A stretch of 64,000 bases of DNA from Bolinopsis microptera. Lineage: Eukaryota; Ctenophora; Tentaculata; Lobata; Bolinopsidae. The notes beneath the pieces are model-generated. The model was not told the DNA's origin. It saw only the letters and a program-made list of their open reading frames with translations, and made no database searches. This document shows positions 4,877 to 54,721 of this stretch, piece after piece. Made by a program: the position numbers and the translations under genes. The DNA is taken from the NCBI RefSeq assembly GCF_026151205.1, contig NC_087078.1, positions 15,455,118 through 15,519,117 of the forward strand, in the 5' to 3' direction. Each line of letters begins with the position of its first letter. Within the stretch, counting starts at the first letter, position 1.

Positions 4877-6960
4877 TTTGTTTTGAAACCCCACGGTGGA
4901 GGTTGGCGTGTGCCGCAATTTATTAATCAATGGTTATTACATAAATGAAATTATAGAAGTCACACTAAAATATAATAATGTAAAATAAAATATATTAAAA
5001 TAAATGCCCTACTAGAAGTACTATATAACTAACGGTCTGCAAAACTGGTTGAAGTCGCAATTTGTAAACATGCTAATTACTATTTGATAATAATAGATAA
5101 AAAGTTTTGCGCGGCAGATGTAAATTTGGCATTGCATAATGGCAGTGAAATTAAAATGATATGTTGTTAATGTTGATAAAAGATCATGGTCATTTGTCGC
5201 GAGTGATCTTTCTTTACGCGTTGTCGCTTACTAACTCGGTGTTGTAGTCTATCTGCGAGCGCCCTTCTCTTTGAGACTTTCTTAGCCCAGGTATACTATA
5301 AAGTAAGAAATTTGGCCAATTTTCATCGTCTCCTGAGCTTTGCAGCTTGAGGAGTTCGCGCTTAGCTGAATTTTTAAAGATTTCAATTGAAAAGGTAGAA
5401 CTTGGAATAGTTATATCCTTACTTTGTTTTGTAATAGAGAGCATGGGTCCTTTGAAGAAAAGAGTATTTCTAAATGTTGGGCCGTTGTAAGTTGTGAACC
5501 AAGAAAGGTTATGTTCGTATGTGGAATTATAGGTGGGAATATCGTGAGGGAAAAGTTCTTTGATGGATTTAGGGAGAAGGCTTGGCATGTTCCTTACTTT
5601 GTGTAGTAGAATAAGAGCGTTTTTAACAATGACACTATGGACTGTTAGGATATTATGCAATCTAAACGCACTTTTTGTGTGCTCCGGGGGATTGCCGTCT
5701 TTATATCTATAATTTACATATCCTGACATAACAGCTCTAATTCCCTGCTTTTGCTTGGTGAACAGAGATTCAATGTGACATTTTGAGGCAAATCCCCACA
5801 CTAAAGAACAGAAATTTAGATGGGATTGGATAAGGCTTTGGAAAATGTTTAGGCGGGCTTTGATAGGTAGAAGGTGCTTTAGCTTATACATAACTCCGAG
5901 GTAGCGACCCATCTTTATTCTAACTGCCGTAATGTGTTTTTGCCAAGTGAGCTTTTCGTCTAGGATCACTCCTAAAAATCTTGCTTCAGTCTTACGTTCG
6001 ATTACAGTGTTGTCAATGGACAAATTAAAGCCGCTGAAGTCGATTCTTTTTCTAGTGAAAATCATGTAACACGTCTTTTTTACATTTAAAGATAGCCCAT
6101 TAGCACCTACCCAATCTACAAGACGTGAAATTAGCTGATTAGCTTTTAATTGTATTTCTTCTAGGGTGGTTCCACTAATTAATATGTTTGTGTTGTCGGC
6201 ATAAAGGATGAACTTTGCAAAATCACTAATTCCAGGTAGGTCGTTTATATAAATTACAAATAAGAGAGGTCCTAAAATGCTACCCTGAGGTACGCCGTAA
6301 ACTATGGGCATGCTAGAAGAGCAAGTTCCGTTTAAAGTTACGTATTGAGATCGATTACAAAGGTAAGATCTAAACCATTCGTGCGCGACTCCCCTGATCC
6401 CACAATGGTCAAGCTTCTTAAGTAAGGTCTCATGATCAAGCACGTCAAAGGCTTTACTGTAATCGAGCAGGAGCAGTAGGGAAATTTGTTTCTTATTCAG
6501 AGAGTGTAGTATAGAATTTTGGGCATTGAGCAGTGCATGTTCGCACGATCTTCCTGGCCGAAATCCGTATTGATTTTCGAAAAGAGAATCGTTCTTGTCT
6601 AAAAATTCTAAAACACGAGCATGCATAAGTTTCTCATAAATTTTCGAGAATGATCCCAAAAGAGAGATCGGCCTATAATTAGCTACTTCCAATTTTGAAC
6701 CACCTTTGTGGATAGGAACGACTTTCGCAGTTTTTAGAGCATTTGGGAAGGTACCACTGGAGAACGAACAGTTAATGACATTAGCTAGTGCCCTGGTAAA
6801 GTTTTCGCAGCTGTTTGCAATTTTCAATGGCTCAATTTTACAATCGAGTGTGGACTTGTTCTTAAGCCCTGATATTATCTTTTGGACTTCACCGTGTGAT
6901 GTAGGCTTAAGAAACATCGAGTTACTACACGAAGCCTTAAGAAAATGCTATAATCATTAA
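4877..6960 (-). mobile_element. 5'-truncated LINE (non-LTR retrotransposon) with reverse transcriptase
   Basis: The minus-strand element comprises the RT-bearing ORF (6917-5214) and a 3' region of about 340 bp ending near 4877 in a CAAAACAAA-like tail. The 3' end is defined by a second copy at 39419-39782, which matches closely from 4877 up to the last codons of the ORF and then diverges abruptly, as 5'-truncated LINE copies do. The endonuclease and ORF1 regions are missing, so the element is dead. RT features suggest a CR1/Jockey-type LINE; the clade is not certain. The 5' boundary near 6960 is approximate. Confidence 0.85.
5214..6917 (-). pseudogene. LINE reverse transcriptase ORF with altered catalytic motif (YADN)
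   Basis: The open frame is 567 residues and in order shows AKVVPIHKGG and NYRPISLL (RT motifs 1-2), FGFRPG-like QYGFRPGRS (near 118), LDYSKAFD (first catalytic Asp, about 152), GVPQGSILGP (about 208-217), and YADN at 239-242 where active enzymes have YADD. GFNLS, FLGV and FW-like C-terminal segments follow, as in CR1/Jockey-type proteins. The second Asp of the metal-binding pair has become Asn, which is expected to abolish polymerisation. The frame is otherwise uninterrupted, so the insertion is fairly young. The N-terminal endonuclease domain is absent. Confidence 0.85.
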
Positions 6961-11960: not shown

Positions 11961-12189
11961 ATTTCCAACGATTTAACAGAATGAAACAGATCAGGAGCCT
12001 ACTCGGCCGCTCAAGGTAACTCTGTTCAGTTTCTGTAAGCCAGTACAGCCTATCAGTTATTTGGTCAATCTAGAAAACTACGATAGTGGAAGAAGTTTAG
12101 GTAAGTCATTGTTAGTCAAGAGCTCTATCATTGGAGGATAGAGTTAAGTATAGAGTAAAATAGACTTTTAGTTCAGTACCAAAACAAAA

Positions 12190-12612
12190 AGAAGATTACT
12201 GAGATTACTGAGAATACTGAGAATACTGAGAATACTGAGAATACTGAGAATACTGAGAATACTGAGAATACTGAGAATACTGAGAATACTGAGAATACTG
12301 AGAATACTGAGAAAACTGAGAATACTGAGAATACTGAGAATACTGGGAATACTGAAAAATACTGAAAATACTGAGAATACTGAGATTACTGAGAATACTG
12401 AGAATACTGAGAAAACTGAGAATACTGAGATGACTGAGATGACTGAGAACACTGAGAACACTGAGAACAATGAGAGAACACTGAGAAAACTGAGAATACT
12501 GAGAATACTGAGATTACTGAGAATACTGAGAATACTGAGAATACTGAGAAAACTGAGAATACTGAGAATACTGAGAAAACTGAGAATACTGAGAATACTG
12601 AGAATACTGAGC
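12190..12612. repeat. GAGAATACT minisatellite
   Basis: About 45 tandem copies of the 9-bp unit GAGAATACT, with GAGATTACT, GAGAAAACT and GAGATGACT variants. Because the unit length is a multiple of three, it generates long false frames (ILS and VFS on minus, ENT and RIL on plus). It has no gene context. Confidence 0.95.
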
Positions 12613-12757
12613 CAGACAAGCACTACTACGAAGTTTTTATTCATACCAAAAACAAATTAGTGAATTGAATGTGGTTTTACAATTTCATATTATTTAGGAC
12701 GTAAATGATTGGAAAGGATGGAGACTTAAATTGTCTCATTATGGTCAAATGGTGATA

Positions 12758-23253: not shown

Positions 23254-25065
23254 ATGTCACAGTCAAACACTTTGGCAGTGCTTTGTTCCACCATGCTCTG
23301 TGTGGCAAGTCTCGCGAGGGTAACGGGAAGTCAAGGTAAGCCATCTTCTGATTAATGCCAATCTGAACCATTTTTATAACAATGCTGGAAATCCCCAAAA
23401 ATCTTATATCAACACCAACCTAGCCCATATTGTAAGGGCGTATATCAGCATTAACGTTTAGCCACACTGCTGTGAAATCAAGTCTATTTAACCACGATTT
23501 TCCTGTTCAACCACATCTTTGAGCTTTACGAAGTGAAAATAATAGGCTTGGTTTATTTTACATCACCTCAGCAAAACCACCCCTACCAGGCGTAAACCCG
23601 GAGTTATTAATCTCAAGAGGAGCGGCTACAGAGCAGAGCTCAACTGGCTGGCAGGGCTATAGCAGCTACGCAGTGGACGGTAACCGGGGAGGCATGTATT
23701 TCAAGTAGGTTCAACTTTCGGGTCTGATGTGCTGACTATACTACTGGTAATATGTCTGATGTGTTGACTATGTTCTGAGTTAAACTCAAATAAAGTGTTT
23801 ATGCAGTTGAACTATGGACGAAATTGAACCATATTTAGGGCCGAAACTTCGAATCGGGAACTGAAAACTTTTGGCTGATATAAAAACTGATACTGGTAAT
23901 AAATGAACTGGCAAGCATTATGAAACATCTGAGAGCACAATACAAAATATTTGTTAAGATATTTTGATCGCAAGAACATATTCTTCGTCATACGAATTCA
24001 GTTCCAATCCTGGAGCTGACATGTCTTGCAATATCTCGCTCAAAATCCATCAATATCATTGGTTAAACATCCATCTCTGGGAGTCTGGGCCTGATCCTGC
24101 TTTTAACTGGTTACCATGATATCGTAATCACACCACTATAACCAGCCATAGTCTACACAGTTTGATCCTGACATCTCCATTTAGTTGGCGGACTGAAACC
24201 CTATCGGACCAAATCTCTAACGCTTTCCCTAACCATAACCGTAGGCGTAATCCCAACTGTTATAGCTTAACCGTTAGTTTAATCGTGATCCTAACCGTGA
24301 ACATAACCCTAATCTAAACCTTAACACCTTAACCTTAATCCCATTCCTAACCCTAACCGTAGCTAGTGGTAGTCATAAGGTTTACTTTAGGGATTAGGTC
24401 TGTTAGGGATTCGGTCCACCTACCTTCTCAGTTTACCTGTCGTATGTCCTTCTGCCTTTCCTAAATTGGTCCTTGTAAGACGGATAGATATTCGGATAAG
24501 TATCTGTCGTATATACCTATCCCAATCCTCAGAGACAAGTGTGCCCATTCGGGAGAAAAAGGCCGCAATTGGTGGAAAGTTTCATTTGACAAACAATTCT
24601 CTGTCAACTTGGTGTACATCTACAACCGACAGGATTGCTGTCAAGCAAGAATTAACGGCACCCTGGTTAGCAATATTAATAATCTAATAAAGCACTTAAG
24701 TTAAATAATTAATAAACTTTAACCGCAGCATGGATTTTATGACAACTTCTAATGGAATCAATCATTGCGTTGCTGGTTGATGTTCCAGAGGAATAGATCC
24801 ATCAACGAGAGTTTAACTCAATATAATATTGTGTAATCCTGTCTATTTCAAAGGTCTACGCGGGAAGCCAGTTGTGTGGGAGAGTGATATACGACCCAAA
24901 AGAAAGCAGCTACAAAGTCTCTTGTGGAGGCATTCCCGCTGAAGAAGTTACGATCAGGAACTCAGGGAGTTACTTGACGCTCTGTGAGGTTGAGGTGTAT
25001 AGAACACCCCTCCGATCCTACAAACCCTTAAAACCCTCCAAGCCCTCCAAACCCTTAAAACCCTC
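23254..25065 (+). CDS. Exons 1-4 (part): signal peptide and F-type lectin (fucolectin) domain
   Basis: Exon 1 encodes MSQSNTLAVLCSTMLCVASL..., a signal peptide. Exons 2-4 give the fucolectin/F5-8-type order: ATEQSSTGW...SSYAVDGN, DKCAHSGEKGRNWWKVSF, VNLVYIYNRQDCCQARINGT, VSCGGIP and LTLCEVEVY. These correspond to the usual 'QSS..AVDGN', 'C.H(T/S)......WW.VDL', 'V.IYNR.DCC..R.NG' and 'LTLCEVEV' signatures. In F-type lectins this jelly-roll fold binds L-fucose with Ca2+. The adjacent Cys pair DCC, typical of the family, is present. The canonical fucose-binding His and Arg residues cannot be assigned safely by eye. A Lys/Pro/Ser repeat linker follows. Confidence 0.85.
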
Positions 25066-28000
25066 AAACCCTTAAAACCCACCAAACTCTCCAGATTCTC
25101 CAAGCTCTCCAAATCCTACAAATCCTGCAGTAAAGAGGCTTTCGAGACGACGAGTGTGTCGTTGTCAGAGTTTAAAGATTGCACAACGTTCACAGGGAGT
25201 CTCGTGATAACGAGCGAGACACTAACCAGGTTCGGCTTTATTCTTGTGCAGTAATATAAGAAGGAAATTATTAATTTTATAAATTTTTCCGGTTCTGGAT
25301 GAAAACCATGTGTAATGTGGTACGTGCACTGATACAACATAGCGTGTTATATATATATTGCGCAATTTAGTGTTATTTGTTTTGAAACTTCTCGCCAGCA
25401 AGTTTGAGGCTAAGATGAGAAGTATGTATGATACCGGGCGGAAAGTACGTACTTGTACTTTATTTTGAAAAGTACGTATGATACCTCAGTGTACGATTCA
25501 ACAAATTTTCAAACTTATTTTCACAGGCGCGATGTAACGTTTTTTAGATCCGACGTTTTATTTATTGGAAACTCCCGACTTCCATGATTGAAATTTCATT
25601 GTCATGATGGTTTTGAAAGCCATATTCATGGAGATAATAGAAACACTTAATCGCAGATAACAAAGAAAGTTTAATAAGCTTCATCATTTCATTAAAACAA
25701 AAAACAATGAACTTTCTAGCATCATCATTTCAACAGATCAAATTTACTTTCAGCTTTAACGTTTCAGTATTGCATTAAAGTTGATGTAGATCAATTTGTT
25801 GAATCTCTCAGGCTTAGTGCGTAGTCTTCTACTGCAGTAGATATACTCCATGTACTTATAAGACTCTGAAATCGCGCGAAATTTTAAAAACCGCGCGAAA
25901 CACGAAAGTTTGACACGTGCACTTATACATTATTGTATCTGCGTACTTTTCCGCAGTATTTTAAAAGTACGTACTTGTACGATACTTTGAAAAGTACGTA
26001 TGATACATACTTCTCATCTTAGGTTTGAGGTGACTCTCAAGTCTCAGTCTTTCCTCATAATACTCTGGCAACTCTTGCGGGAAATTATCGGTTACCCGTG
26101 TCCACGACTTTTCGGGGAAATAATTCCCGGAAAATATTATTGTATTATACAATTTTATTTTATTTGAAATCTGGATCACCATGGGCGCTAAATCCCCTCA
26201 GTCCCCCGGCCGGTTTATCGAAACGGACATGATCCCAGATGGCACAAAGCCAATATCACATTTTTATTTGTTGTTCTGAGTAAAGGTTACTTAGTACCTT
26301 TATGGCAACTTGTGTCACTCTCACTAACCTCACTGAATATTCGCTGGTCAAATTTCAGTCAAAACCGCGAAATTTCGGTTAAATTTCGGTCAAAAGCTCC
26401 TCTTCAAAAATCTTCCAAAATCTCTTTTATATTCTGATGATATTCCGTTTATCAAAGCTTTCTTTGGGAATAGAACTTTGAGTACCTCAATCGTGTCTGG
26501 CGCCATCCACAGTGGCCTTGTAAGATGGTTATTCAAGAAAATTTCAGTCAAATCAGTGAAACAGCTAAAATTCGAATATGTCCTACCGGTAGGACATATT
26601 CAAAATTTTCATGGCATCAAAGTTTCCTCCGGATATACTGCTTCTCTGACCACTGACCTTCTCTGCAAATACAGTGCCTATGCGGGTCTGAAGATTAATG
26701 CTGGCAAAACACAGAGCATGGTTGTCAGCAAAAGTGCATCGCAGAGGCCGTATTCTAAAGACGACACTATGGACATCAATGTGGAAGGTCTCCCAATACA
26801 GCAGGTCAGCAATTTCACTTACTTGGGTGCAATCATCAGTGCAAATGGAACAATTGACAAAGAACTATCAGCTCGAATTCAAAAGGCCTCTGGGGCATTC
26901 TATCAGCTTAGCAGTATATGGTACAGTCGCAGCATCAAGACTCCAACAAAAATCAGGATTTACAAAGCGGCTGTTCTCACTATACTGTTCTATGGAAGTG
27001 AGGTATGGAATACCACACAGACGCAGATGAAAAGATTTGAGGTGTTCCATCATAGATGTCTGAGGAGAATCCTGAAAATCAAATGGTTTTATCATGTTTC
27101 TAATGCTGATGTACTTAAGCGGGCTAACATCGCCCCTGTTGATACTTTCGTACGAGCAGCTAGACTCCGATGGTTTGGCCATGTGGTGAGGATGCCAGAA
27201 GAAAGAATACCCAACTATCTTCTGCACTGGATCCCAAAGCATGGTAAAAGGTCAAGAGGTAGACCTAGGAAAAACTGGTTGTCATGTGTCCGGGAGGATG
27301 CAGCAATCTTCACAGGTGTCGATAACATCACGATAGAAGATGCAGAACAACAAGCTACAGACAGGGTTCACTGGAGAGGTCTAATACACCGGAGAAAGGA
27401 GTTACTATGTGGTGCAGGCCACTCCAACGACTAGGAGGAGACCTTTCCAAGTACAAGTAAGTATACTGCTTCCAGTACCAACTACCAATTCTTTATTTTA
27501 AAATCCTGTTGCTCACAGATTTCGGGGAAACATGGATGCGGATAATGTTAATCTCATCAACGCTCTGCACTATTTGCGGAATATTAGGAAAATCACGGGA
27601 ACTTTGATTGTAAAAGATGTTGCTGAACTGGAATCCTTAAGTTTTCTGCAAAATTTGGCGACTGTTGAAAACAGAGGAAACGAATCATTTGCTATAGAAA
27701 TAACGAATGTAAGTAGTAAGCAGCTCAGTTTTAGAACGTTTAAGATGAACTTTTAAGTTCTTGAATTTAATTTTATGTTATTCTGAAATTAATGGATTAA
27801 CCAAAATTATCTACTGTCATGAAGTTTTAAATCAACCAATGGTGATAAAATGGATTAATTTCAGAACAAAGGATTGAGATCAACTGATCTTCATTCTCTA
27901 AAGTTTGTAAACTTCGGAGCAGTCAAGGTTTGTATTTTTTCTAAATCTTACCTATAAAGTTTTCCGTTTGTACGCTATAAGAAATATCAGACTTCAGAGA

Positions 28001-31000
28001 CAATATGTGCTCCTCGTTTGCCTCATTTCCTAAAAATCAATGTTATAATAGACAAATAAAGAGAGTACCAACTTTCAGATAAGTGATAATAGACAGTTGT
28101 GCTACTACCCCACTAAAGATGGACTGCAGATGATCAGGACCATTAACAAAGCTGGAAGAAAACTGAAGTTTCTTCAACGGAAGATTGAATTGTTTGAAGT
28201 GTTTTACTGGGAGGTTAAAGATGACGTGTCAGGAAATTGCGGTGAGTCTGACTAAAAAGACATTTGAAATGCGTGACATGAGTTTCATGACACTGACAGC
28301 ATTTGGCGAATATTTTGCCGTATTCCATGTACAGTTTACATTAACTTTGACAAATTATTTTTTGTTTTGACAAATATTTATAATGTTTTTATGATGTTTT
28401 GAGACAAAGTGAGAGTCTCCACTCAGTTTCTCAAACAAATAGTTGTCGACGTCTCGACAACTATTTGTTTGAAAGTTTGTAAAACAGATTATCAAAAACG
28501 TATTTACTCGAAATTTTCTTCAGTCGACAAAAACCTTAAAAAAGGAAAGAACATGAACAAATGCCCGAAAAGCTGTGGAGACAATGGGTGTTGGGGAAAA
28601 CATCCAAGGTTTTGTTTACAAATTGTCTGTATGGATTCTATAATGCCGGTAAGTCTGCAGTTAACACATCCTCGAAACAAATTGAAGATTGTTATATTAG
28701 TATATTGTATTAACATTGATTGCTGTCAAAATTTGTTTTCCAAAGGGAATAAATTTCACGTCATCTCCCTACCATCGGTTAAGTGCATATTGTCAAAAAA
28801 TGAATTATCATGTGAATTTAACCACTATTTTACAACAGACTGGCTCATCTTCACCACCCGATACCATCAAACCGACCAGTCCAAGTTCCAACACTAATTC
28901 TTACACAAAGTGTAAAGGTGACCCAGTTAGTTTGGGTTGCTGGAAAGACGACACTAAGAGGGCCATATCAGGTGGGATAAGATTCACATCGGACAACCCG
29001 ATTGAGGATTGTCAGATTTATGCTGCAAGTGTAGGATATGATGTGTTCGCTGTCCAATATGGTGGCGAGTGTTTTACATCTTCAAATGCTGGCAGCACTT
29101 ATCAGAAATACGGAAAATCAAGAAATTGCCAAAAGGACGGTCGTGGAGGTAATTGGGCCCAAAATGTTTATCAGGTCAACAAGTGCATCAAAGGTAAGTT
29201 TGGTGTGATTACTGGAACTTTCAGATATCCATTTTATTTCGAAATTCGAATAAATTTACATCAATGTATTACAATTTAGCTAAAGTGAAAGTGAAAGTTT
29301 ACCGACAATTACACCAATTAGGAGTGTGGCATCATATAATCAGGCGGTATAGAAGTAACCCTTGACTACCACTTCAATTACACATGAATCATGTGCTATC
29401 CATAAAGACGGTTATCGAGTATTATCCTAAATCATAATCAAAGAAAATGAACTAACATCATGTATTTCCTGTTAGATAAAACTAAGTTGGAGAGATCTGA
29501 CGATGACTCCGCTGCTGCCTTCCCAAACATGACAGGAACATCATGGAGCTGGGCTCATGACGGAGTTAGCTCCAACGGTATCATTGAGTTCCTTCCAAGC
29601 GGAGTAACGAGGTGGAATAATGGTAAAAAGCAAGGTTTCTGGAGGATGAACGACAGTGGGAAAGTTCTGGAAACCAGATTCAATGGAATTCACCATACGC
29701 TAAAGTATATGGCTGACGAGAAAAAAGCAGTGCTGGTAATCCCTAATAGATTTCCTGCAAGTACTATGAGAATGAAAGGTGAATATTGCTTCAAATCATT
29801 TTGCATTCTAGCCATCGCTTATTTAATGATAAAGGACGTCCTTGACAGATTAAGTTACTTTACGGAAAATGACTGATAACGTTATATGAACTTAATAATT
29901 GAAGTAAAATACGTTGATATAATAATACGTAATATGAACTTAATAATTAAAGTAAAATACGTTGATTTCCCGTAAAATCGTAGGATCACCAGTCAAAGAA
30001 AGTAAAACAGATCGGAAGCGGAAGGATAGGTTTAGGATAGTAGATACCAAAGGCGATGACATCAAAACCGGAGAAAGGGGTCTACTGCTGTATTACGGTG
30101 GTACAGTGTGTGATTATGGATCATTTAATGACAATGCTGCTGATGCTATTTGCCGAGAGATGGGCTATTCAGGTTCTGATAACTGGATGACTGCAGGATT
30201 GTTTGATTTCTTTTACATTCAACAGAAACTTGAAATAAATGTAGGTGCGATTGAATGTGGTGATGATGACTGGTCGTCATGTTCTTATTCGAAGAGGAAC
30301 AAATGCGAACACACTGATGATGTGTTTCTTAGCTGCAGTACAGGTAAAATTATATAATTTATGTGAATCACAGTCCATAGAAAATGTTATAGATGTATAC
30401 CAGATCAATGTCAGTCTGCTTATATCAATACAAGTTTAACATCGTGTGAATTGTCTGTCAAATAATTGGTCTCTAGACAAAAAGTTCATCCAATTTATGG
30501 AATTTGTGTTCAGAAATTTTCATATTTGAAAATGGGACAGAAATCGGTAAATATGAATTTTCGTTTTTTAAGCTTTCTGCTCTGAGCTTCCTCCGACCGA
30601 AATCAAACTTCCAGCAAGCTGTGTTGTAACCATGAAATATGTGGCGTATACACTTTGTGCGTGTATACGCCAGAGATACATAAACGTATTCATTTTATGA
30701 TACGTAACTACTAATGTATACATTTGACATATTCTGATTTCTGAGTGCGTCCCGCTTGCAATTACATCTATAAATAGGGTTCAAAATTTACAGTGCAAGA
30801 GGACAATTTTTCACTCGTGGACGAAGATGGTAACAAAGTCAAAGCTACAGAAAGGGGCCTACTCCTCTTCAACGGTGGAACCGTCTGTGACGATAACTTT
30901 GATGAAAACTCAGCTGATGCTATTTGCAGACAGATGGGGTATTCAGGCATTCTCAGCTGGACAAGTGGAACTTATTATGACATTCAGCAAGATTTAGAAA

Positions 31001-34000
31001 TAAACCTAGATGACATAGAATGTATTGCTAATTCTTGGTCGTCATGTATTTATTCGGAGACGAACAACTGTGGGCACGGCGAAGATGTTTTTCTTAGCTG
31101 CGAAACAGGTAAAATTATTTTTTTCCCAGCTAAAGAAGCGGGTTGCTTACAGTAGAGGTAAAGCTACACACATTCTCAATTCAACCATAAGCGTTCAGCA
31201 ATTTTTAAGAAATTTAAATTAAAAGCATAATAATGAATGTTAATTTTCTCAGAGGAAGGCTCCACAATTGAATTCGGCAAAAGATTGAGGGATGCGAAAA
31301 ATACAATGTCGTCGAAAACAAACTCTGAACGCACAAGCGCAACCTCAAAATCATATTCTGAGTCCTCTTTGAGCAAATCCGATAGTAATTCGGAGACTTA
31401 TGCCTCAAAAGATGGCCAATATAAGCCGTCAACGACCTTTCCATCCTTCACAATTACTGGAAGTCAAAAGTCACAATCCAGATCAGAAAAAGTGAGCCCT
31501 ACTGAATCATCACCAGTTTTTCAGACAGTCTATTCACTCAGTTCTTCAAAGGCATCTATTTCGCAAGGCTCTGAATCCTCAGATTCTTTGTCAAGCACCT
31601 CGAAGGCATTCACATCGTCAGAAAAAGTAAGTCAATCTTCAGCCAGCACTTCAGAGGCAGCTAAGTCATCACAGAGCTCGGGGACTGCGAGTATCAGTCA
31701 AACATCAGGTTTTATGTCTAAGTCGCCAAGCACCGCATCAGAACCATCACAAAGTTCTGAAAGTCCATCGACAAATACAAAAGACCAACAAACTTCACCT
31801 TCCATGGTTTCTCAAAGTGCAAGTGCGTCATCAGCATCAGAATCATCTGCAAGCTCAAGATATCCCAAACCAAAAACCGTAAGTCAATCTTCATCGGATG
31901 CATCATCTCCAAGCTCAAAAGAAACATCCAAACCATCATCTAACTCCCCAGGCCCAAGATCTTCAGCGGCTTCAAAATCATCACCTAGCTCTATGAGCCC
32001 TTCACTAAATACGAACTTTGTTTCAAAAACAGGAGCGGCTTCCAGTTCAGAACCGACACGTTCATCACCAAGTTCTGATTCTTCTTCAGCAAGTACAGCA
32101 TCTCCTCAGGTCACAACAACAGCTGATGACTTCTTTACCTCCACACAATCATCAAAGGCAACATCAGTCAGCAAAACATCAGAATCAACCAGCACTAGTC
32201 AACGAACAGAGCAAGCATCTGAGTCAGCAAGTTCCTCAAAATCAGACGAGAACAGAACACCATCACAAAGCACTGCTGTTGTAGAGTCTTCGCCATCTAC
32301 GTTGAAACCAGCAGGTTCAGAAGGATTTACAGAACTAACAATACAGACAATCGCTTATACCGATGAACAATTCACACGACCCAGCGAGTCCATATCGAGG
32401 TCATTCCCCGACTTCTTGACAGTGCAAGCTGAAACTTTTAATGAACTTGGATATGAAGAAGAAGATTTAAGTTCAACGTTCCAGGTAGAAAGCACTGATC
32501 CGTTAATGGATGATAAGTCACTAAAAGAATCTCAAGCCAAAACCACAGATACTCTCCAAGAAGAAGACATGCCAGCAGAATATTTAATGAAGGAGTTAGC
32601 ACCTGTCAAGATTTTACTATCAACAAAGGAATTCGAAAGATACGAAGCAGCAGGATATTTTGATGGTGTCCAATATTCGTGGAAGTTTAGAGATGGTAGC
32701 TACGAAGTGATCATACAACCGCAGTCTTATATGCGATTCTACAATAACAAGAGTCAAACTGTGGGTAAGTACAGTTAAAAAGAAGACATATTTAATCTTT
32801 AACCAGTTCCCTAAAAGATTGGAACACAGGAAGACACATGCGTTCTTTCTGTGATTTTCAAGATCCATAATTTTCTGCCAGCACTCAAAAGTGTCCACTT
32901 TCCTTGTAAAGTAAAATAAAATCTGTGGAAGATATTATATCCATAAGGATGGTTATAATATTATGTTAATTCTTTATTCTTAAGGATCAGTGAAAGAAAT
33001 AAACAATGATGAGAATAACTTTGAGTTCAAGTTAACGGCTAACGAATATGAGAAATACAGAATGGCGGGATATTTTAATAATATAAAATACAGTTACTTT
33101 GAAATAGAGGACGGATTCACCATTACTCTGTCTCGGGAGGCTTATCAGAAGTTCCTTGCCAATAAAGAAAATCCAGGTAAACATTTGTATGTTGATGACA
33201 TTTCAGTATAATAACAATCAATTCGCTTCCAATTTTTTACTTACTGAAAATAAACTTAACAATCTTGATAACGTATGGCATGATTATTCTTGCAGAGATG
33301 GGAAGATTTAGATTGGAGTTGGAAGATAACACAAAAGATCAAACGACATTAACTCTGACTAAGGAAGAATTTGAAGATTACAAGACTGGAGGGTACTTTA
33401 GAGGAATTAAATACACATGGACCGAACAAAATGGAGTCTATATGATTTATATATCACAGTCTTCTTACGACAAGCTGAGGCAAAACATGGACTCCGCAGG
33501 TATTATACACCACTATTATTTAACAATTAAATTCAGAATTCCAATTGAATTTATCACAATCGAATCCATCATGGTCACACGAAGATTTTGTGGTGTATTC
33601 CATCTAACACCGTACTCACCTCACAGTAAGTCTAGAAAGCATCGTCTTAAATAAAGAACAGTTCAACAGTTACAAAGTGTTGGGGTATTTTGATGGGGTG
33701 GTTTATGAATGGTCCATAGCTGATGGAGTATACACTGTTTTTATGTCACCGGAGGATTATCTACAGTTCACCAACAACAAAGAGGGTAATTAATTAATAA
33801 CTACAATTCACATCTTGTGCTCATTTATAGGATTGAGCAGCACAATCAATCACAATCGTAAATTCGTAATGTCCTTGCTGAATCAAACTGTTATACAAAG
33901 AATCCTACTTTAAGAGTTTAAGGTGCTCCTATTTTATCAGAATCTGCTGAAGATGAAGATACAACGACATTGACTCTCAGTGAGGAAGAATTTGACGAGT

Positions 34001-37000
34001 ATAAGTCAAGAGGGTACTTCAGAGGAATTAAATACACGTGGACCGAACAAAATGGAGTCTACACAGTTTACATCTCACTGTCTTCTTACAACATGTTAAT
34101 GCAAAACATGGAGACTACAGGTAAGCAGTAGATATGACTTAGTTCTCATTTATACTTACCTTGATTACTTAAGTGAGCTTATTTACAGTGTTATCTTGAA
34201 GCAGTCAACTATTCTTGCAGTAGCTTCTCAGTATAGCTGCTGAGTGGCGGCCCGTTCAATGAGCTGTGCAACAAATACCAATTTACTAAGTTATCATGAA
34301 TTTGAAATGGCTAAGTTTTTATGGATATTTAATGGATATTTAATAGATATTTAATGGATGGATTCCATCTTATCCTGTGATAACCCCTCAGAAATCTTAG
34401 AAAGAATCATCTTATCCGAGGAACAGTTTAAAAGCTATAAAGTGTTAGGATATTTCAATGGGGTGGTTTTTGATTGGTCCATGAATGATGGAGTATACAC
34501 TGTCTTCATGTCACCTGAGGATTACCAGCTTTTCGTCAACAACAAAAAGGGTAAAATATAAAAACAAACAATTCATATTCCATTCTCATCACACTGATGT
34601 TACAACAGCACAATCTGAAATGACTGATTACAATTATTGGAGTTTTTCTTCAAAGGAATCAACATTTAGGGTTATACCATTTTTTAGGATCCGTAGAAGA
34701 TGATGGTCTGGCGACTGATACGATAACCTTGACTTTGAGTGGAGAAGAATTTGACGAGTACAAGACAAGAGGGTACTTTAAAGCAATAAAATACAGATGG
34801 ACCGAACAGAATGGGGTCTACCAAGTCTACATTCCACAGTCTTCTTACGATATGTTGAGGCAAAACATGGAATCTGCAGGTTTATGATTTATAATATTAA
34901 GCTCCGTTAACTCTCGGCATCAGTCTCATTTTATATTTAACCAAATATTTTCTGTTAATAATAGCAACAATTATTGTTCTGTTCCATCTAACACTATAAT
35001 AAACTTTCAGACATTCTAGAAAGCTTAGAAAGCATTGTCTTAACTGAAGAACAGTTCAACAGTTACAAAGTGTTAGGGTATTTTGATGGAGTGGTTTATG
35101 AGTGGTCCTTAGCTGATGGAGTATACACTGTTTTTATGTCACCTGAAAATTACCAACTGTTCGTCAAAAACAAAGAGGGTAATTAAAAACGGAATACAAT
35201 AAATATTTCACGCTCGTTCATGAGATTAAACGGTTTACATCAGCACGATTTAAAGTAACCACAATCTCTCTTGATCAGTGAAACTGTTTTTCAAAGGACA
35301 TAAATACAAGTTCTGCTTCTTTTCAGGATCAGCTGTTGAAGAAGGTGACACAACCATCTTAACTCTTAGCGAGGAAGAATTTGAAGAATATAAGAGGAGA
35401 GGATACTTTAAAAGTATCAGATACACGTGGACTGAACAAAATGGAGTCTACACAGTTTACATCTTACAGTCTTCTTACAACATGTTAATGCAAAACATGG
35501 AAACTACAGGTGTGGAGTTATAATTATTTTACTGTTATTTCAAGATTGAATTTAATTACATGAACATTAAATTTGACCTCAAGGGATGAACATTTTTGGA
35601 TGGTGTTCATCTTACACCGTCCCACCTCTCAGAACGTTTGGAAAGCATCGTCTTAACTGAAGAACAGTTCAACAGTTACAAAGTGTTGGGGTATTTTGAA
35701 GGAGTGGTTTATGAGTGGTCCTTAGCTGATGGAGTATACACTGTTTTCATGTCACCTGAGAATAACCAACTGTTCGTCGACAACAAAGAGGGTATTTGAA
35801 AAATAATAAAAATTCACATCTTACGACAGCAAAATTTGATTACAATCATGTTTCTTGATTCAAGTGACTTATTTTTGAAGGACTTTCTAACTTTAAATGT
35901 AGGTACTGTCACTGTTTCAGGATCTGTAAAAGATGATGGTCTGACATCCAATACAAAAACGTTAACTCTTACCAAGAAACAATTTGATGACTACAAGACT
36001 GGAGGGTACTTCAGAGGAGTTAAATACACATGGACCGAACAAAATGGATTCTACATTGTCTACATTTCACAGTCATCTTACAACATGTTCATGCAAAACA
36101 TGGAAAATACAGGTTCCCGCCAATCTAGATAATTAAGTTTGTATTGATGAGACTGTGCATCGCTTATGGCATGAGTCATACATCAACCTTTTGACATTTT
36201 AATTGGTTACCAAATTATAATTTGTCTCTCTCGATCTCTCTCGATAGTTTCGTGCTAGTTAACATTTTAAAAAGGTACTGATACCATAATAATTTCTCAG
36301 AAAATCTGAAAAGCATTTTCTTAACTGAGAGAGAGTTCAACAGTTACAAAGTGTTGGGATATTTTGATGGAGTGGTTTATGAGTGGTCCTTAGCTGATGG
36401 AGTATACACTGTTTTTATGTCACCTGAGAATTACCAGCTCTTCGTCAAAAACAAAGAGGGTAATTAAAAACGGAACACAATAAATATTTCACGCTCATTC
36501 ATGAGATTAAACGGTTTACATCGGCACGATTTAAAATAATCACAATCTCTCTTGATCAGTGAAACTGTTTTCCAAAGGACATAAATATCAGTTCTTTTCA
36601 GGATCTGTTGAAGATGGTGACACAACCATCTTAACTCTTAGCGAGGAAGAATTTGAAGAATATAAGAGGAGAGGATACTTTAGAAGTATCAGATACACGT
36701 GGACTGAACAAAATGGAGTCTACACAGTTTACATCTTACAGTCTTCTTACAACATGTTAATGCAAAACATGGAAACTACAGGTGTGCAGTTATAATTATT
36801 TTACTGTTATTTTTAAGATTGAAATTAATTACAAGAAAATTAAATTGGACCTCAAGGGATGAACATTTTTGGATGGTGTTCATCTTACACCGTCCCACCT
36901 CTCAGAACGTTTGGAAAGCATCGTCTTAACTGAAGAACAGTTCAACAGTTACAAAGTGTTGGGGTATTTTGAAGGAGTGGTTTATGAGTGGTCCTTAGCT

Positions 37001-40000
37001 GATGGAGTATACACTGTTTTCATGTCACCTGAGGATTACCAACTGTTCGTCAAAAACAAAGAGGGTATTTGAAGAATAATACAAATTCACATCTTACGAC
37101 AGCAAAATTTGATTACAATCATGTTTCTTGATTCAAGTGACTTGTTTTTGAAGAACTTTCTGACTTTAAATGTAGGCACTGTTTCAGGATCTGTAAAAGA
37201 TGATGGTCTGACATCCAATACAAAAACCTTAACTCTGACTAAGGAAGAATTTAATGACTACAAGACTGGAGGGTACTTCAGAGGAATAAAATACACGTGG
37301 ACCGAACAAAATGGAGTCTATATCATCTATATATCACAGTCTTCTTACAAAGAGTTCATGCAAAATATGGAAAATACAGGTTTAACTTTGACTGAGAAAT
37401 GAATTATTTGAACGTGAAACCTAAACTGGATCTGTAAACACCTGTATATTAACTTAAACTCCAAAAAACAGAAAAAGAAGAGGAGTTTGTTCTAACCGAG
37501 GAACAGTTCAACAGCTACAGTGACAGAGGTTATTTTGAGGGTGTGGTGTACGAATGGAGCCAGGAGGATGGGGTGTATATCATGACCATGTCCGCTTTGA
37601 ACAGGCAGCTATTGGATAGAAACCGTGGAGCTGACAAACAATATAGTAACTAAACTTCTTGTTTTATGGTTTAAAGTTTAGGTGTTTATTGACCACATAC
37701 TCTGTTTAGGCGGTCGGAGAAGCTGTCTTGAGAGTCGAGGTAAAATCGTGGCCATTTTTTTACGAGGGTTTAATTTTCTGAAAGATTGTAGTAAGATTTA
37801 TTGGATGTTTCCTAAATAAATATTCATCTTTATTGACACAATATAGTTTACTGAAGGCTGGCAAATTCTTATAAATTAAATACTTTAAACGACTATTGCG
37901 ACTTCAAGTCCGACATTGAATATTTTAAATTATTTCGGTTAAATACCTCTTCAAAAGTCCTTCTTCGACATAAACAACCTGGGTGGTGTATTATTTGTGC
38001 CTGGCAAGTTATACGTTTAAGAGCGATATCTTGAATGGTCGTAAAGGATTGGCGAAGGAGTTTCAAGTATATGTGATCGACCACAAAATGGCCTTTGAAA
38101 ATTGCGCATTAATGCTAAATGCTAACCTTCGACTAGCGATGATTCTTTTCTTCTTTGTTTACATAATACATGTAAGAAATTTAAAAATGCGCTATCCAGT
38201 TATTGTACCAGCTCAAAATATTCAGTCTAATGACAATGCTTATAAAACAAAAAATGTAACAGTAATTCATAGATTTTAAATTATACAGAAGTAATGATTT
38301 CAGGAGAAGAAGACGAAATGAAAGAAGACTCAAAAAACACCGCTATCCTCACTCTAACCAAGGAAGAGTACAAAGAGTACGAGACACGAGGTTATTTCGA
38401 AGGTGTGAAGTACAGATGGAGTGAGAAGGGTGGAATGTACACACTGTACATTCCTCGCGCATACTATGAGGATCTTATGAGGAAGATAGGGTCTTATGGT
38501 ATGTTGTGTAAATGGCTTATGTAGTATTTTTCGTAGGGGTTGTGGTTGCAAGCAACACAGTAAGATAGGACATATAAGGACATTATCTTGGTGAAATTCT
38601 TTATTTTACTATGTTGATTGGTATAATATGGTGGTTTACCAGTTACCACATTAATGTTTTCTATGGCATGATTGTTTAATAGCGTATAATGGATTACGTA
38701 ATTTGACCGACTGCTTTTCTTTCAGAAGAAGCTGAGGTGGTGAAGCAAGTGGTTCGCAAGACAGGTGGCATGATGTTTGTAGTGACACAAACAAAGGTTT
38801 GCGAAGGGACCAAGGAGACTCCTTTATCACATTTGATCGACGTGCAAAATTAAAATTCTAGATTCCATTTTTCAAATAAGACGACTTTGTGATCATGTCA
38901 AAATTGATCCTTACCAATATCAAATTAGATAGAATGCCTAGTTAACAATACCCGAATAGAATTTATTTTCTATCAATATGCAAGTAAATAATATTTACTA
39001 GAGGGTAGTCCTGGAGGGGTTTTGTAAACACTACAAACGGTTATTTACACGAGAGGTTGCTATTTCAGAAGCTTTGAAATAAAACGTGCTAACCTTCTTC
39101 AGAAAGTAATGCTCGGTGAAGAGAACGTTGAAATAGCAGGGGGTATCTACAGTACACTTCAGTACCTGACACCACTCAAGTCAGACAACGTGTCCCTAGT
39201 GAGGACTGATGGTGGGGTGGTGAGCAAGGGGGTGAAGTTAGAGCTGCAGACCTCTCCTATTGCTTCAGCTCTGGTTATCAAGATGAGGATCAGTAGGGTT
39301 ACTGAGGATGTGGCAGGTAAATAGGAATAGTTGATGGTTATTTAGTTTATAAATTGGTTCATTATATCACATATCACTATCATATTATCTTATTATGCAA
39401 CAGAAGACAATTGGTTGTTTTGTTTTGAAACCCCACGGTGGAGGTTGGCGTGTGCCGCAATTTATTAATCAATGGTTATTACATAAATGAAATTATAGAA
39501 GTCACACTAAAATATAATAATGTAAAATAAAATATATTAAAATAAATGCCCTACTAAAAGTACTATATAACTAACGGTCTGCAAAACTGGTTGAAGTCGC
39601 AATTTGTAAACATGCTAATTACTATTTAATAATAATAGATAAAAAGTTTTGCGCGGCAGATGTAAATTCGGCATTGCATGATGGCAGTGAAATTAAAATG
39701 ATATGTTGTTGATAAAAGATCATGGTCATTTGTCGCGAGTGATCTTTCTTTACGCGTTGTCGCTTACTAACTCGGTGTTGTAAGAAGAATATTTGAAAAT
39801 TAAAGCTTTCAGTTAAAGTCTGCTGAATTCTTTTCCAAAATTATTCCAGTGCAAACTCATGTTTTATCTAGGATATGATAACTTTTTAATTTCAGTCAAT
39901 TTTAATTTCTGTTATTGGAAAAATCAATAAACTATATCATTGGAATATATTCTTAGTATCGCATTATGGTGATTATGGCATGATCACTTTTTTAATCTTC

Positions 40001-52100: not shown

Positions 52101-54721
52101 ATCGATCAACCTACATTTTTCGCCAGGCTGAGTGGTCTATAAAATACAACAATTTGTGTCAATAATATTATCAAGAAACGCATTTCAATCACATTAGTCG
52201 CGCTTTGTCAATAGGAACAGAATTGACTGAAGTCTTCCTGGCATCTGAAAACTATGAATACTATAAATACCAAGGAGTTATAGGCAATTCCATCAAATAT
52301 ACCTCTCATCACACGGCGGAGTATTCTCTTATATCGACTACGCTCCACCCTACCTGTCAGTGCTTCACCAATATTAATACCTTACTCGGGATTATTATAA
52401 CCGGGATAAAGTGGTGGGTTTTGGAAGATTCCGCCATCTTTTTCCCGGTCAGAAATTTTACCAGTCATAAAAAAACCCGCCGACTCAGATTATGGGGTTC
52501 CAAGGGGGTGGTGATCATCATAGTTTACCTGAAGTCTCATATGTGCTAGAGAAGACTTTTGAAGCAGTGGATGGAGGGCTGTAACTTTATTGGCGGTTGC
52601 TACCATAATTTCGTTATAAAAATCACAATTTGGTTATAGAAATCAGATTTCAGTGTGGACCGTGATTCTCACTTTTCTTGCCCATGAAGTGAGTAAACTG
52701 TGCCACTATTTCATGGTCCACGGTGGATTGATTACTGGAGCAGTTGAATATGCAAAGCCAAGACGTTCCCCAATACCAAGCGGTGGGCAGGAAATTAAGC
52801 TCCGGCTGACTTTCAGAGCAGTAGCCCCATTAGCGGACAAAATGAAAGTCTTGTTAAGACAACAATACAACTTCGAATTTGACGGTCAGCAGCAGGGGGA
52901 TATCAATAATGATAATGGAGGGGACATTAGCGATAATGAGAATGAGAATACGCTTTAATGAAGATTTGACTTATTATTGCTATAGATTTATTTTCCTTTA
53001 AATACTAGACGTGTCTTTTTTTCTATTTATGAGTAATATCAGTAACTGTAAATTGAAATAACTTCTTTAACAAGTAACAAAAACAGAAATTTCGGTTGAA
53101 AATTTGTTGACCTCTGAAAAAAAACTTGAAAGGTCGGCCACCGGTAAATACATGACCGGGATAATTTGGCGGGTTTTGGGAAAGTCCGCCATATTTTTCC
53201 CGGTTATTAATTTTCCCAGTCATAAATTAACCCGCTATAATATTCCCGAGTAAGGTATGTTAATATTGATATATATATTGGTAATACAACATTAATAACA
53301 CCAATATAATATAATGATAGCGCAATAATTGTAAGTTTTTACGTTCAGGGAAATCGAGGCCAACCCAACATGGACGATAATGATCCTCTACAAATACGGA
53401 GTATTCGCCGAGGCTGTTGACCTGGCATCAATGGTTACGCATATCTCAGCAGAAGACGCAGATAATAGTAAGCGTTTTAAAACTTTTCTCGAATATTCTT
53501 GTCTTGAAAGAAATGAACGTGTAAATTACTTATATGAGTAAATTATATAATTTGTGAATCATGATGATGAAGTATGCGCTGCCAGTGCCTGCATAATATC
53601 CCATCATCCCGACACTAACTCGATCCCTTTTAGAACCAGTCGAAAGCAAAGATAAGGAAGATGATGAACATGTCAGAAAGGCCAGGGAAGCCCAGAAGAA
53701 AGCAGAGGAGAAGGGAAAGAAAGGAACTGGGCCACCAGAGGACGGAAAACCATGGAGTTGCGGTTAGTGATTTAGATTATATCAGAAATATTCGATTCAC
53801 TGTTCCCTGGTATATTTATTCAGGATGTTACAGGAGAATTAATTTAATGTAGTTTGAGGAGTCCTCACTCTCCTCACGTCCAACAATGGCGTTTCTCTTG
53901 TCGCTAATTTGAAGATAATTTGTTGCTGATTTACCTACGAGTACCAACGTCACTCTTGTTAAGTTTCGTCAAGTCTTGACATTGTCTAGCGTCTGTCTAC
54001 CCTACAAGTTAAACAGTTAATGAGATAAAATATTGTTAATAGTTTTTCTGGACGGCATGTCTCATGTACAGTTTTCCTTACGCAGGTAAAGTAAAATGGG
54101 AGCTCCCCAAGGAGGAAAAGAAGTTCAGAGATGTTGGAAAATTAAAGATCCCAGACTTTGGAGCTAAGGAAGAGGAAAAGAGCACTAAGGATGTCGGCAA
54201 GCTCAAGTGGGACGGGGTAAGCTAATTACTTAATTAGCTAATAAGCTAATTAGCTATATCTTTTCTTTCTCACAATATCTGTAAACTGTTGTAAGAGGCT
54301 GCAATTGTGCTATCTGTCCGCGATGTAATTTATATACACGGACACCTTTAAGGTATGTACCTTCTAACAATTGATGCGAAAATAAACATTTTCTTATATA
54401 ATTTTCCAAAATATACGAACGTAGCGGAAACTGTGTCAGTCTGAGTCGGTAGTAAAGTGATATACTGAAGTTGTCTTTATCACAAAAATGTTAGAATCTG
54501 CCATAAGTTGGATGTCCGATAACATACAAAAATCACAAGCTTAACGCATGATGTCATTGCAGTTTAGCGCTGAGGAGCCTAAAGAAGTCGTTAAAGAAAA
54601 GCCTAAAGTTGGTAAACTAAACCTGGGAGCTTTCGGAGGCGCACCAGCGGAAGCCAAAGCACCAGTGAAAAGATCGTGGAAGAAGAAGGAAAAGACAGCT
54701 GAGGAGAACGGCGCAAAATAA
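42745..54721 (+). CDS. Intracellular Lys/Glu-rich and Pro/Glu/Val-repeat protein, 13 exons, about 636 aa
   Basis: Exons: 42745-43100, 46754-46891, 47326-47455, 48032-48088, 48785-48895, 49694-49813, 50620-50757, 50886-51063, 51365-51510, 53349-53467, 53634-53762, 54086-54216, 54563-54721 (TAA). All borders are AG/GT and phases agree; removing one extra T at about 50683 in exon 7 gives 1911 nt, exactly 636 codons plus stop. There is no signal peptide or TM segment, so it is cytosolic or nuclear. Order: basic N-terminus with a KKE repeat helix (1-118), beta-rich region 1 (119-208), Pro/Glu/Val repeat exons (209-304), beta-rich region 2 (about 325-500), Lys/Glu-rich segment, then VGKLK repeats. 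No family was recognised. The PEV-like spacer and charged coils recall cytoskeletal or muscle elastic proteins, but that is only analogy. Confidence 0.75.
43101..46753. other. Long intron 1 of the second gene
   Basis: 3.65 kb with no additional exon found. Contents are a perfect-type hairpin at 45421-45479 and two AT-rich paragraphs that resemble each other near 43500 and 43590 (ACTTTCAT.T.GTAG..A.AATC.ATAATGAG). The frame at 44722-45123 has no features supporting a gene. Confidence 0.4.
45421..45479. repeat. Near-perfect 28-bp-stem hairpin
   Basis: CTTGAAGGGTTTTCTGGTTT... pairs with its complement across a 3-nt loop (AAT), with one mismatch (a G:U pair in RNA). It may be a miRNA-like precursor or a minimal foldback element. 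It lies in the first intron of the second gene. Confidence 0.75.
46754..47455 (+). CDS. Exons 2-3: beta-rich region 1
   Basis: Exons 46754-46891 and 47326-47455 encode RTMAMQKLTFSLTAFDPTPS, ECSLAFDEKTCVVEST..., then KPSEIYLKVTPDPIAFVMKF and KMMIEFKGSWSAFQV. Alternating hydrophobic residues and aromatic ends suggest a beta-sandwich. It shows a loose kinship with region 2 (for example 'REFVIAYFHP...EFRVEIY'), so the two could be diverged copies. There is no match to a family I know. The intron between them contains a long poly-G run. Confidence 0.7.
46989..47027. repeat. Poly-G tract
   Basis: About 37 G with a single C interruption, 100 bp downstream of exon 2 of the second gene. G-quadruplex-forming and prone to sequencing error. 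Confidence 0.9.
48032..50685 (+). CDS. Exons 4-7 (part): duplicated Pro/Glu/Val/Gln repeat exons
   Basis: 48032-48088, 48785-48895, 49694-49813 and the first part of 50620-50757, all phase 0. Exon 4 ends TEVLQSDEIQ, exon 5 is PEVPEV... ending VPQSDESQ, exon 6 is QVEVxQVEV... ending VEESQ, and exon 7 opens TQVQEVVQEVVETEVVTT. The shared 'xxSDExQ/EESQ' ends and similar introns (recurring CAGCACTTATATTTTGATA-like text) show that an exon-plus-intron unit of about 0.75-0.9 kb was duplicated in tandem. The low-complexity PEV/QVEV strings recall elastic PEVK-type spacers, by analogy only. Confidence 0.75.
50686..53467 (+). CDS. Exons 7-10: beta-rich region 2
   Basis: From exon 7 after the frameshift point (SGFSYNICFKVHFIEDDVDA) through exons 50886-51063 (NYTIVYQATQADGGREFVIA, EFRVEIYIMI), 51365-51510 (VTGELFLLRGIVKDDKVTIL, LKLYITFYIKDPELQVKIF) and 53349-53467 (EANPTWTIMILYKYGVFAEA). 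It has long beta-strand-like stretches with acidic turns. No catalytic motif was seen and it is unassigned. The donor after CAGCAAATG at 51063 (GTGGAG) is weak but is the one that keeps phase 0 with the next exon. The intron 51511-53348 contains a MITE-family insertion and a module-like orphan exon. Confidence 0.65.
52219..52379 (+). pseudogene. Orphan, diverged A-type module exon
   Basis: After an acceptor-like TTGTCAATAG, the phase-1 reading is GTELTEVFLASENYEYYKYQ followed by a G, a few residues, SIKYTS and EYSLIS. This lines up with the A module (L-T-x-E-E-F-x-x-Y-K-x-x-G-x-x-x-x-I-K-Y-T). The entry phase also equals that of the giant gene's A exons. The GYF and W positions are lost, and the element at 52380 cuts it off before any donor. 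It is best read as a dead copy of the module; the gene around it does not use it. Confidence 0.4.
52380..53255. mobile_element. CCTTACTCGGG element, long member (876 bp)
   Basis: The left end CCTTACTCGGGATTATTATA and the right end ...ATATTCCCGAGTAAGG are flanked by TA on both sides. Arms contain GTGGGTTTTGGAAGATTCCG and the matching right-hand GCGGGTTTTGGGAAAGTCCG. Unlike the 122-bp MITE, it has a 650-bp interior including a frame at 52653-52958 (about 101 residues) with no recognised features. It is inserted in intron 9 of the second gene. Confidence 0.7.
53634..54721 (+). CDS. Exons 11-13: charged C-terminal tail with VGKLK repeats
   Basis: Exon 53634-53762 encodes an Arg/Lys/Glu-rich helix (VRKAREAQKKAEEKGKKG). 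Exon 54086-54216 contains VKWELPKEEKKF, DVGKLKIPDFGAKEEEK and DVGKLKWDG. Exon 54563-54721 has KEKPKVGKLNLGAFGG and ends in a Lys/Ala/Glu-rich tail, stop 54719-54721. Three spaced copies of 'K-V/D-V-G-K-L-(K/N)-(hydrophobic)' suggest a short linear binding motif. The stretch looks disordered. It is the most repetitive part of the protein apart from the PEV exons. Confidence 0.75.

What the first reader, a model, noticed from the sequence alone, without database searches (positions are those of the whole stretch)
31253..38498. Undescribed ~50-residue module repeated 17 times, one per exon, in strict A/B alternation
Sequence: sixteen exons (plus the end of exon 13) encode copies of a Cys-free module with invariant G-Y-F-x-G-(V/I)-x-Y-x-W and (D/N)-G-V-Y cores. 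From exon 15 to exon 29 the types alternate A,B,A,B without exception. All exons are phase 1-1 and multiples of three. Knowledge: symmetric phase-1 exons are the classic substrate for exon shuffling and cassette splicing in extracellular proteins. Inference: the A+B pair is the duplicating and probably the folding unit, possibly interlocking as a filament or ladder. I know no named domain with this signature (it is not the intracellular GYF domain).
Basis: partly seen in the sequence, partly recalled or inferred. Interest (0 to 1): 0.88.

Follow-up and report, generated by a model that had tools for sequence, protein, structure and literature searches.

The report
New exon-encoded protein module in ctenophore
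A comb-jelly genome encodes a small protein building block that matches no named family I could search, one block per exon, multiplied into chains at several places, once as the tail of what looks like a secreted binding protein.

Summary
Seventeen tandem copies of a Cys-free module of about 50 residues lie at 31253-38498; all 17 exons are phase 1-1 and multiples of three. Types A and B alternate from exon 15 to 29. Same-type copies show purifying selection. The 'invariant' motif is overstated: GYF 17 of 17, full motif 12 of 17. No library match reached a cut-off.

New here: (1) The genome is a ctenophore's. (2) The module is a family at four loci, 74 matches plus one weak one, including 48 on contig C11 beside a K/E/P-rich frame. 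(3) It is two beta-alpha half-repeats. (4) AlphaFold2 predicts beta-alpha-beta-beta-alpha for single B and A modules (pLDDT 94.6, 90.5); nearest geometry is the bacterial ring-building motif, not significantly. (5) The last duplication copied four exons; A-to-B spacing is nearly fixed, B-to-A varies.

Most likely: a class 1-1 module, perhaps lineage-restricted, forming the rod-like tail of a secreted mosaic protein. Rod and assembly roles are inferred.

The parts
23254..23335 (+). Putative exon 1: signal-peptide-like MSQSNTLAVLCSTMLCVASLARVTGSQG, ends in phase 1
   Evidence: inferred, no RNA
23590..23679 (+). Putative exon of a galactose-binding (F5/8-type or fucolectin-like) domain, phase 1-1
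   Evidence: Pfam PF22633 at 25.4 bits is below its cut-off of 27.8, on a hand-joined string
27519..27708 (+). Receptor L domain exon (borders tentative)
   Evidence: PF01030 E 9.9e-8, above cut-off; borders
28839..29193 (+). WSC domain exon (start tentative)
   Evidence: PF01822 E 3.2e-7, above cut-off; donor phase 1
29993..30343 (+). SRCR domain exon 1, phase 1-1
   Evidence: PF00530 E 9.9e-8
30794..31108 (+). SRCR domain exon 2, phase 1-1
   Evidence: PF00530 E 1.1e-12
31253..32764 (+). Exon 13: Ser/Thr-rich mucin-like spacer (448 aa, 30% S, 12% T), then module 1
32985..33176 (+). Exon 14: module 2, neither A nor B
33296..33499 (+). Exon 15: module 3, type A
33627..33785 (+). Exon 16: module 4, type B
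33941..34120 (+). Exon 17: module 5, type A; AlphaFold2 model m528c05e50e9a
34392..34550 (+). Exon 18: module 6, type B
34688..34879 (+). Exon 19: module 7, type A
35011..35178 (+). Exon 20: module 8, type B; AlphaFold2 model mb8e12ca6c9b9; first exon of the recently copied block
35327..35509 (+). Exon 21: module 9, type A
35633..35791 (+). Exon 22: module 10, type B
35921..36112 (+). Exon 23: module 11, type A; last exon of the copied block
36301..36459 (+). Exon 24: module 12, type B; counterpart of exon 20 (91% DNA identity)
36602..36781 (+). Exon 25: module 13, type A; counterpart of exon 21 (99%)
36906..37064 (+). Exon 26: module 14, type B; counterpart of exon 22 (97%)
37188..37379 (+). 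Exon 27: module 15, type A; counterpart of exon 23 (90%)
37472..37645 (+). Exon 28: module 16, diverged type B
38289..38498 (+). Exon 29: module 17, diverged type A
38726..38797 (+). Exon 30: phase 1-1 if spliced at 38797; read through, it stops at 38852 (possible C-terminal end)
   Evidence: read from the sequence; inferred
39107..39316 (+). Possible exon 31, in frame, phase 1-1, no Pfam match
   Evidence: inferred

Best explanation
A module family without a name in the libraries searched, encoded as one class 1-1 exon per module and perhaps restricted to ctenophores. Each module is two beta-alpha half-repeats with a strand between them, folding on its own as beta-alpha-beta-beta-alpha. Shown by computation: the exons, their phases, purifying selection, the family at four loci and the half-repeat. 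Predicted: the fold. Inferred: in this gene the 17-copy array is the C-terminal rod (about 1000 residues) of a secreted mosaic protein. Its upstream exons (galactose-binding-like, receptor L, WSC, two SRCR) would be the ligand-binding head and the Ser/Thr-rich exon a glycosylated spacer. The array grew by unequal exchange of two- and four-exon blocks, which symmetric exons tolerate, so length can change without frame loss. A and B are old diverged copies held at a nearly fixed A-to-B spacing. The rod most likely gives reach and multivalent self-association or anchoring, not catalysis.
For: 17 of 17 exons phase 1-1. At the C1:20.45 Mb and C11 loci, 26 of 30 scanned module exons have an acceptor at the same point of the module in phase 1, 28 of 30 a phase-1 candidate, and all 15 with a donor listed are phase 1. 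A profile of those loci recovers 17 of 17 window modules with 0 of 616 decoys. pN/pS 0.27. Half-repeat score 14.7 against shuffled mean -3.0, sd 2.2, maximum 5.3, 0 of 300. pLDDT 94.6 and 90.5 with the same five elements. A four-exon block copied, three introns at 91-94%. Two-module blocks of 1575-1577 bp on C11. A-to-B linker 11 residues in 6 of 7. Receptor L, WSC and SRCR over cut-off. No stretch fit for a membrane helix in spacer, modules or tail (maximum 19-residue hydropathy mean 0.80).
Against: No RNA or protein evidence. The joining of exons 1-12 to the array is inferred from phase and frame only, and the galactose-binding-like match is below cut-off. The rod and assembly function rests on architecture. 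C1 and C11 proteins look cytoplasmic, so an extracellular role is not general. With the window profile alone, many C11 frames gave only E 0.013-0.56 or were not listed; 2 of the VLQIP-like sub-type passed 0.001. The phase at the C1:4.09 Mb pair is ambiguous. No spliced multi-module model could be made. Restriction to ctenophores was not tested in any other animal.
Confidence: 0.55

Rival explanations
1. Ring-building-motif-like assembler: each module packs on the next, as bacterial ring-building motifs do between subunits, so the chain forms a solenoid, arc or filament and A/B are the two faces of a heterotypic contact.
Confidence: 0.2
2. Recognition array: each module binds a ligand, and A/B diversity and copy number tune avidity in an immune or prey-capture protein.
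For: SRCR and WSC head. In Mnemiopsis, 8 of 12 differentially expressed SRCR genes rose on bacterial re-exposure, and SRCR genes have unique domain combinations (PMC11797021, abstract and passages).
Against: Copies are under purifying, not diversifying, selection; the conserved residues look like core residues (inference).
Confidence: 0.2
3. The array is primarily a cytoskeletal spring module (titin-like design) whose copy in this gene was captured by an extracellular mosaic through exon shuffling.
For: C11 array of 48 matches beside a 369-residue reading frame with 60% P+E+V+K and no Cys; C1 array with five PxWKxxLKK-type repeats upstream. Titin and twitchin were likewise built from class 1-1 modules (PMC8001218 passages).
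Against: The 5' ends of the C1 and C11 genes are not proven; no Ig, FN3 or kinase domain was looked for across those loci; the direction of transfer is unknown.
Confidence: 0.25
4. Non-coding or decayed repeats that happen to read open.
For: No RNA evidence was available.
Against: 17 of 17 in-phase exons with splice signals, pN/pS 0.27, family conservation.
Confidence: 0.02

Closest known systems
Class 1-1 exon-shuffled modules (Ig, FN3 and others; PMC8001218 passages)
   Same: One domain per symmetric phase-1 exon, tandem expansion, use in a secreted-looking mosaic and apparently in intracellular proteins
   Different: Mixed alpha/beta predicted fold with internal duplication, no sequence relative in the libraries searched, seen here only in one ctenophore genome
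Ring-building motif of EscJ/PrgK/FliF (bacterial)
   Same: Predicted beta-alpha-beta-beta-alpha topology, rmsd about 2.1 over 50-52 residues to EscJ
   Different: No sequence similarity found; bacterial membrane rings, not tandem exon-encoded chains; match not significant
KH domains and aspartokinase regulatory (ACT-like) domains
   Same: Similar small alpha/beta arrangement among the next structural matches, some tied with EscJ
   Different: Mostly lower Z (about 3.5-5.2) and higher rmsd (about 2.7-4.3)
Titin/twitchin-type giant proteins
   Same: Long tandem arrays of class 1-1 modules plus a K/E/P-rich segment (C11 locus)
   Different: Different module; Ig and FN3 were not searched at that locus; cell location unknown
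Intracellular GYF domain
   Same: Only the letters G-Y-F
   Different: Not among the Pfam families listed

Membership tests
Class 1-1 shuffled module | Exon flanked by phase-1 introns on both sides | tested here: met
   17 of 17 in the window. At C1:20.45 Mb and C11, 28 of 30 scanned exons have a phase-1 acceptor candidate (26 of 30 at the same point); the 2 without one listed are C1 m1 and m3 (one search shows a phase-1 candidate further up for m1). All 15 with a donor listed are phase 1. C1:4.09 Mb pair ambiguous
Class 1-1 shuffled module | Folds autonomously | tested here: inconclusive
   Single B and A modules predicted at pLDDT 94.6 and 90.5; not an experiment
Class 1-1 shuffled module | Occurs in different domain contexts | tested here: met
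   SRCR/WSC/mucin-like context here; W-K-K and K/E/P-rich frames at C1 and C11; exon joining inferred
Ring-building motif (SctJ/FliF) | Beta-alpha-beta-beta-alpha fold | tested here: inconclusive
Ring-building motif (SctJ/FliF) | Sequence relationship to the family | tested here: not met
   No such hit for Pfam (3 proteins) or for the 17-row profile against PDB sequences
Ring-building motif (SctJ/FliF) | Homo-oligomeric ring | not testable with these tools
GYF domain | Match to the Pfam GYF model | tested here: not met
   Not among families listed up to E 10 for 3 proteins
Any named Pfam/NCBIfam/PHROGs family | Score over the curated cut-off | tested here: not met
   Best Pfam for window modules PF19036, E 0.00039, 21.1 bits, cut-off 26.1; none over cut-off for 9 peptides of the other loci; NCBIfam best E 0.013; PHROGs best E 0.068, no curated cut-off there
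Titin-like elastic protein | Ig/FN3 modules with PEVK segment | not tested
   PEVK-like composition seen at C11; Ig and FN3 not searched across that locus

The most novel reading that the evidence does not exclude
Ctenophores invented their own mobile class 1-1 domain: an internally duplicated beta-alpha-beta-beta-alpha module with ring-building-like geometry. They use it as the tandem brick of both giant cytoskeletal proteins and secreted mosaics, the role that Ig and FN3 play in other animals, and the A-B chain self-assembles into an ordered fibre.
Probability: 0.15. Interest if true: 0.88.

Novelty: new variant of a known kind. Interest (0 to 1): 0.62.

Why it matters
The domains shuffled as class 1-1 exons in animals are said to be a few dozen types, the most used of them mainly beta (PMC8001218 passages). 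A new alpha/beta one, perhaps private to a lineage argued to be the sister of all other animals (PMC10232365, title and passages), would test whether this mechanism worked independently there. The family also gives concrete candidates for ctenophore structural proteins.

Tried and rejected
Rejected: the intracellular GYF domain; the sub-threshold Pfam hit PF19036 (E 0.00039 but 21.1 bits, cut-off 26.1, on a hand-joined repeat query); an 18th module at 52166-52546 (E 0.42 with the window profile, not listed in what I printed for the other two); a bacterial or viral source (viral contigs: 15 pattern stretches, 0 relatives; bacterial and archaeal contigs: 68 pattern stretches, 0 relatives; both weak for distant kin); non-coding repeats. 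A SPOR-like or ferredoxin-like fold completed by a fourth strand from the exon tails of C1 and C11 was considered from recall and left untested. Foldseek gave 0 matches at E <= 0.001, which does not show that the fold is new. Tandem Repeats Finder listed no module copies. Other ctenophore genomes, UniProt, transcriptomes and AlphaFold DB were out of reach. So 'unnamed' means: no match over cut-off in Pfam or NCBIfam and none significant in PHROGs or PDB sequences, and nothing found in my searches of an open-licence library, read as listings and as passages of six papers. Restriction to ctenophores is a guess. The species name Bolinopsis microptera is inference.

Papers seen: passages of PMC10232365, PMC11797021, PMC11184263, PMC6278862, PMC8001218 and PMC8786727 (for PMC11797021, PMC6278862 and PMC8786727 also part of the abstract in those passages); the start of other abstracts and the rest as search listings only.
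Full report
WHAT IS THERE. The array is at the stated coordinates. Seventeen GYF cores occur on the plus strand. Delimiting each by its AG and GT borders gives exons 13 to 29 (31253-32764 to 38289-38498). All 17 are phase 1-1 and of length divisible by three, and the spliced modules read 1009 residues without a stop. No module has a Cys. The motif is looser than claimed: GYF 17 of 17, full motif 12 of 17, (D/N)GVY 13 of 17 (read).

IS IT REAL CODING SEQUENCE. Codon substitution between same-type copies is mostly silent: pooled pN/pS is 0.27 for 7 A copies and 0.27 for 6 B copies (e13, e14, e28, e29 left out). Successive same-type pairs give dN/dS 0.10 to 0.26 for 10 of 11 pairs; the eleventh (19-21) was saturated. 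I had no RNA.

WHOSE GENOME. G000 has 264.65 Mb in 232 contigs. The ligand-binding part of one of its glutamate receptors matches the chain named ML032222a best in the PDB (132 bits), then 4zdm (96), then insect and vertebrate receptors (76 or less). ML numbers are Mnemiopsis gene models (PMC6278862 passages); that 4zdm is from Pleurobrachia is recalled. Against this as a simple test: a longer piece of a second receptor ranked full-length vertebrate receptors first (138 bits), with ML032222a at 127 over the ligand domain only. I take the genome as a ctenophore's. Bolinopsis microptera, with 13 chromosome-scale scaffolds (PMC10232365 passages), fits in size from recall of its assembly and from the numbered large contigs seen, but that is inference.

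A FAMILY, NOT ONE GENE. Searching the genome with single modules found three more loci: C1:20446093-20453967 (7 modules, plus a weak match at 20452948, E 0.19), C1:4094518-4095627 (2) and C11:14676454-14716255 (48 matches: 46, one of them half a module, and one each). With 17 here that is 74 plus one weak match; the tool calls such counts lower bounds. A profile of 30 C1 and C11 modules, with none from the window, recovers 17 of 17 window modules (E 2.3e-12 to 8.2e-5) and no other of 616 window frames or 616 shuffled frames at E <= 1. The reverse profile finds 13 of 351 frames of the other loci at E < 0.001 and 0 of 351 shuffled frames, best decoy 0.18. Among the 13 are two of the common VLQIP-like C11 type (1.2e-5, 6.7e-4); other C11 frames gave E 0.013 to 0.56 or were not listed. 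The C1:4.09 Mb pair, not in the model, scored E 7.8e-10 and 3.5e-6 with the 47-module profile, best decoy 0.26. E-values here are for small sets. In 26 of 30 scanned module exons at C1:20.45 Mb and C11 the acceptor lies at the same point of the module in phase 1; 28 of 30 have some phase-1 candidate; the 15 with a donor listed are all phase 1. At the C1:4.09 Mb pair the phases are ambiguous.

HOW THE ARRAY GREW. For exons 15-28, same-type exons two apart are 75-93% identical in DNA except 26-28 (58%); neighbours are 48-56%. Introns four apart are 91%, 94% and 91% identical for 20-24, 21-25 and 22-26, but 24% for 23-27, against a shuffled mean of 25.5 and maximum 40.4. So the last event copied a block of about 1.27 kb with four exons. 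On C11, successive modules from 14700063 to 14706367 alternate 864 and 711-713 bp apart, a two-module block of 1575-1577 bp repeated about four times. In the tree the 17 window modules fall on one side of a fork (93/96), C11 is one group with weak support (29/69), and C1 is not one group; columns are few. Alternation thus reflects the unit of duplication, seen at two loci. The linker from A to B is 11 residues in 6 of 7 cases and 14 in one; from B to A it is 14, 15, 18 or 29. This favours A-then-B as a spacing unit.

THE PROTEIN. Upstream lie a signal-peptide-like exon (23254-23335), galactose-binding-like exons (below cut-off), a receptor L domain, WSC and two SRCR domains, then a Ser/Thr-rich stretch of 448 residues. 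The signal-peptide, SRCR and mucin-like exons join in phase 1; I did not complete the chain between the galactose-binding-like and SRCR exons. No stretch from the Ser/Thr-rich part to the tail is hydrophobic enough for a membrane helix. The gene may end at 38852 or continue through a phase 1-1 exon at 39107-39316. The C1 locus has five PxWKxxLKK-type repeats upstream of its modules; the C11 locus has a 369-residue frame with 60% P+E+V+K and no Cys upstream. Neither showed a signal peptide in what I read, but their 5' ends are not proven.

HOW IT MOST LIKELY WORKS. Head domains bind, the Ser/Thr-rich part is a glycosylated spacer, and the module array is a long rod that provides reach and multivalent contact. 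The rod role is inference from architecture. Class 1-1 shuffling in animals, including intracellular titin-type giants, is described in PMC8001218 (passages). SRCR genes with unique domain combinations, several responding to bacteria, are described in Mnemiopsis in PMC11797021 (abstract and passages). Ctenophore-specific candidates of tentacle cells, enriched for signal peptides, are described in PMC6278862 (abstract and passages). None of these names this module in what I read.

VERDICT. A genuine module family, unnamed as far as I could search, with strong in silico support; interesting mainly as a possibly lineage-restricted class 1-1 brick with internal duplication. Its fold is predicted and its function open.

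Noticed in passing
G000:C11:14676454-14716255 (outside the window): A second, larger array of the same module: 48 matches, with a two-module block of 1575-1577 bp repeated about four times.
   Followed up: partly
G000:C11:14717001-14718107 (L100): A 369-residue open frame with 60% P+E+V+K and no Cys lies upstream of the C11 array.
   Followed up: partly
L040 3087-3992: Five PxWKxxLKK-type repeats upstream of the C1 array, reminiscent from recall of short actin-binding motifs; no Pfam match over cut-off.
   Followed up: partly
L040 6935-9899: Frames with shared sequence in opposite orientation between C1 modules 5 and 6, which look to me like reverse transcriptase.
   Followed up: no
5217-6947 (-) and 26337-27431 (+): Open stretches that look to me like reverse transcriptase, the second within the putative gene.
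   Followed up: no
53597-54720 (+): Open stretches with VGKLK and RSWKKKEK motifs, resembling the W-K-K frames of the C1 and C11 loci.
   Followed up: no
2150-2769 and 12171-12657: Low-complexity tandem repeats that read open on both strands.
   Followed up: no
39107-39316: In-frame phase 1-1 exon candidate after the array, without a Pfam match.
   Followed up: partly
G000, whole genome: 32 matches to the glutamate-receptor ligand-binding family; 9 lie in open frames of over 900 residues.
   Followed up: partly
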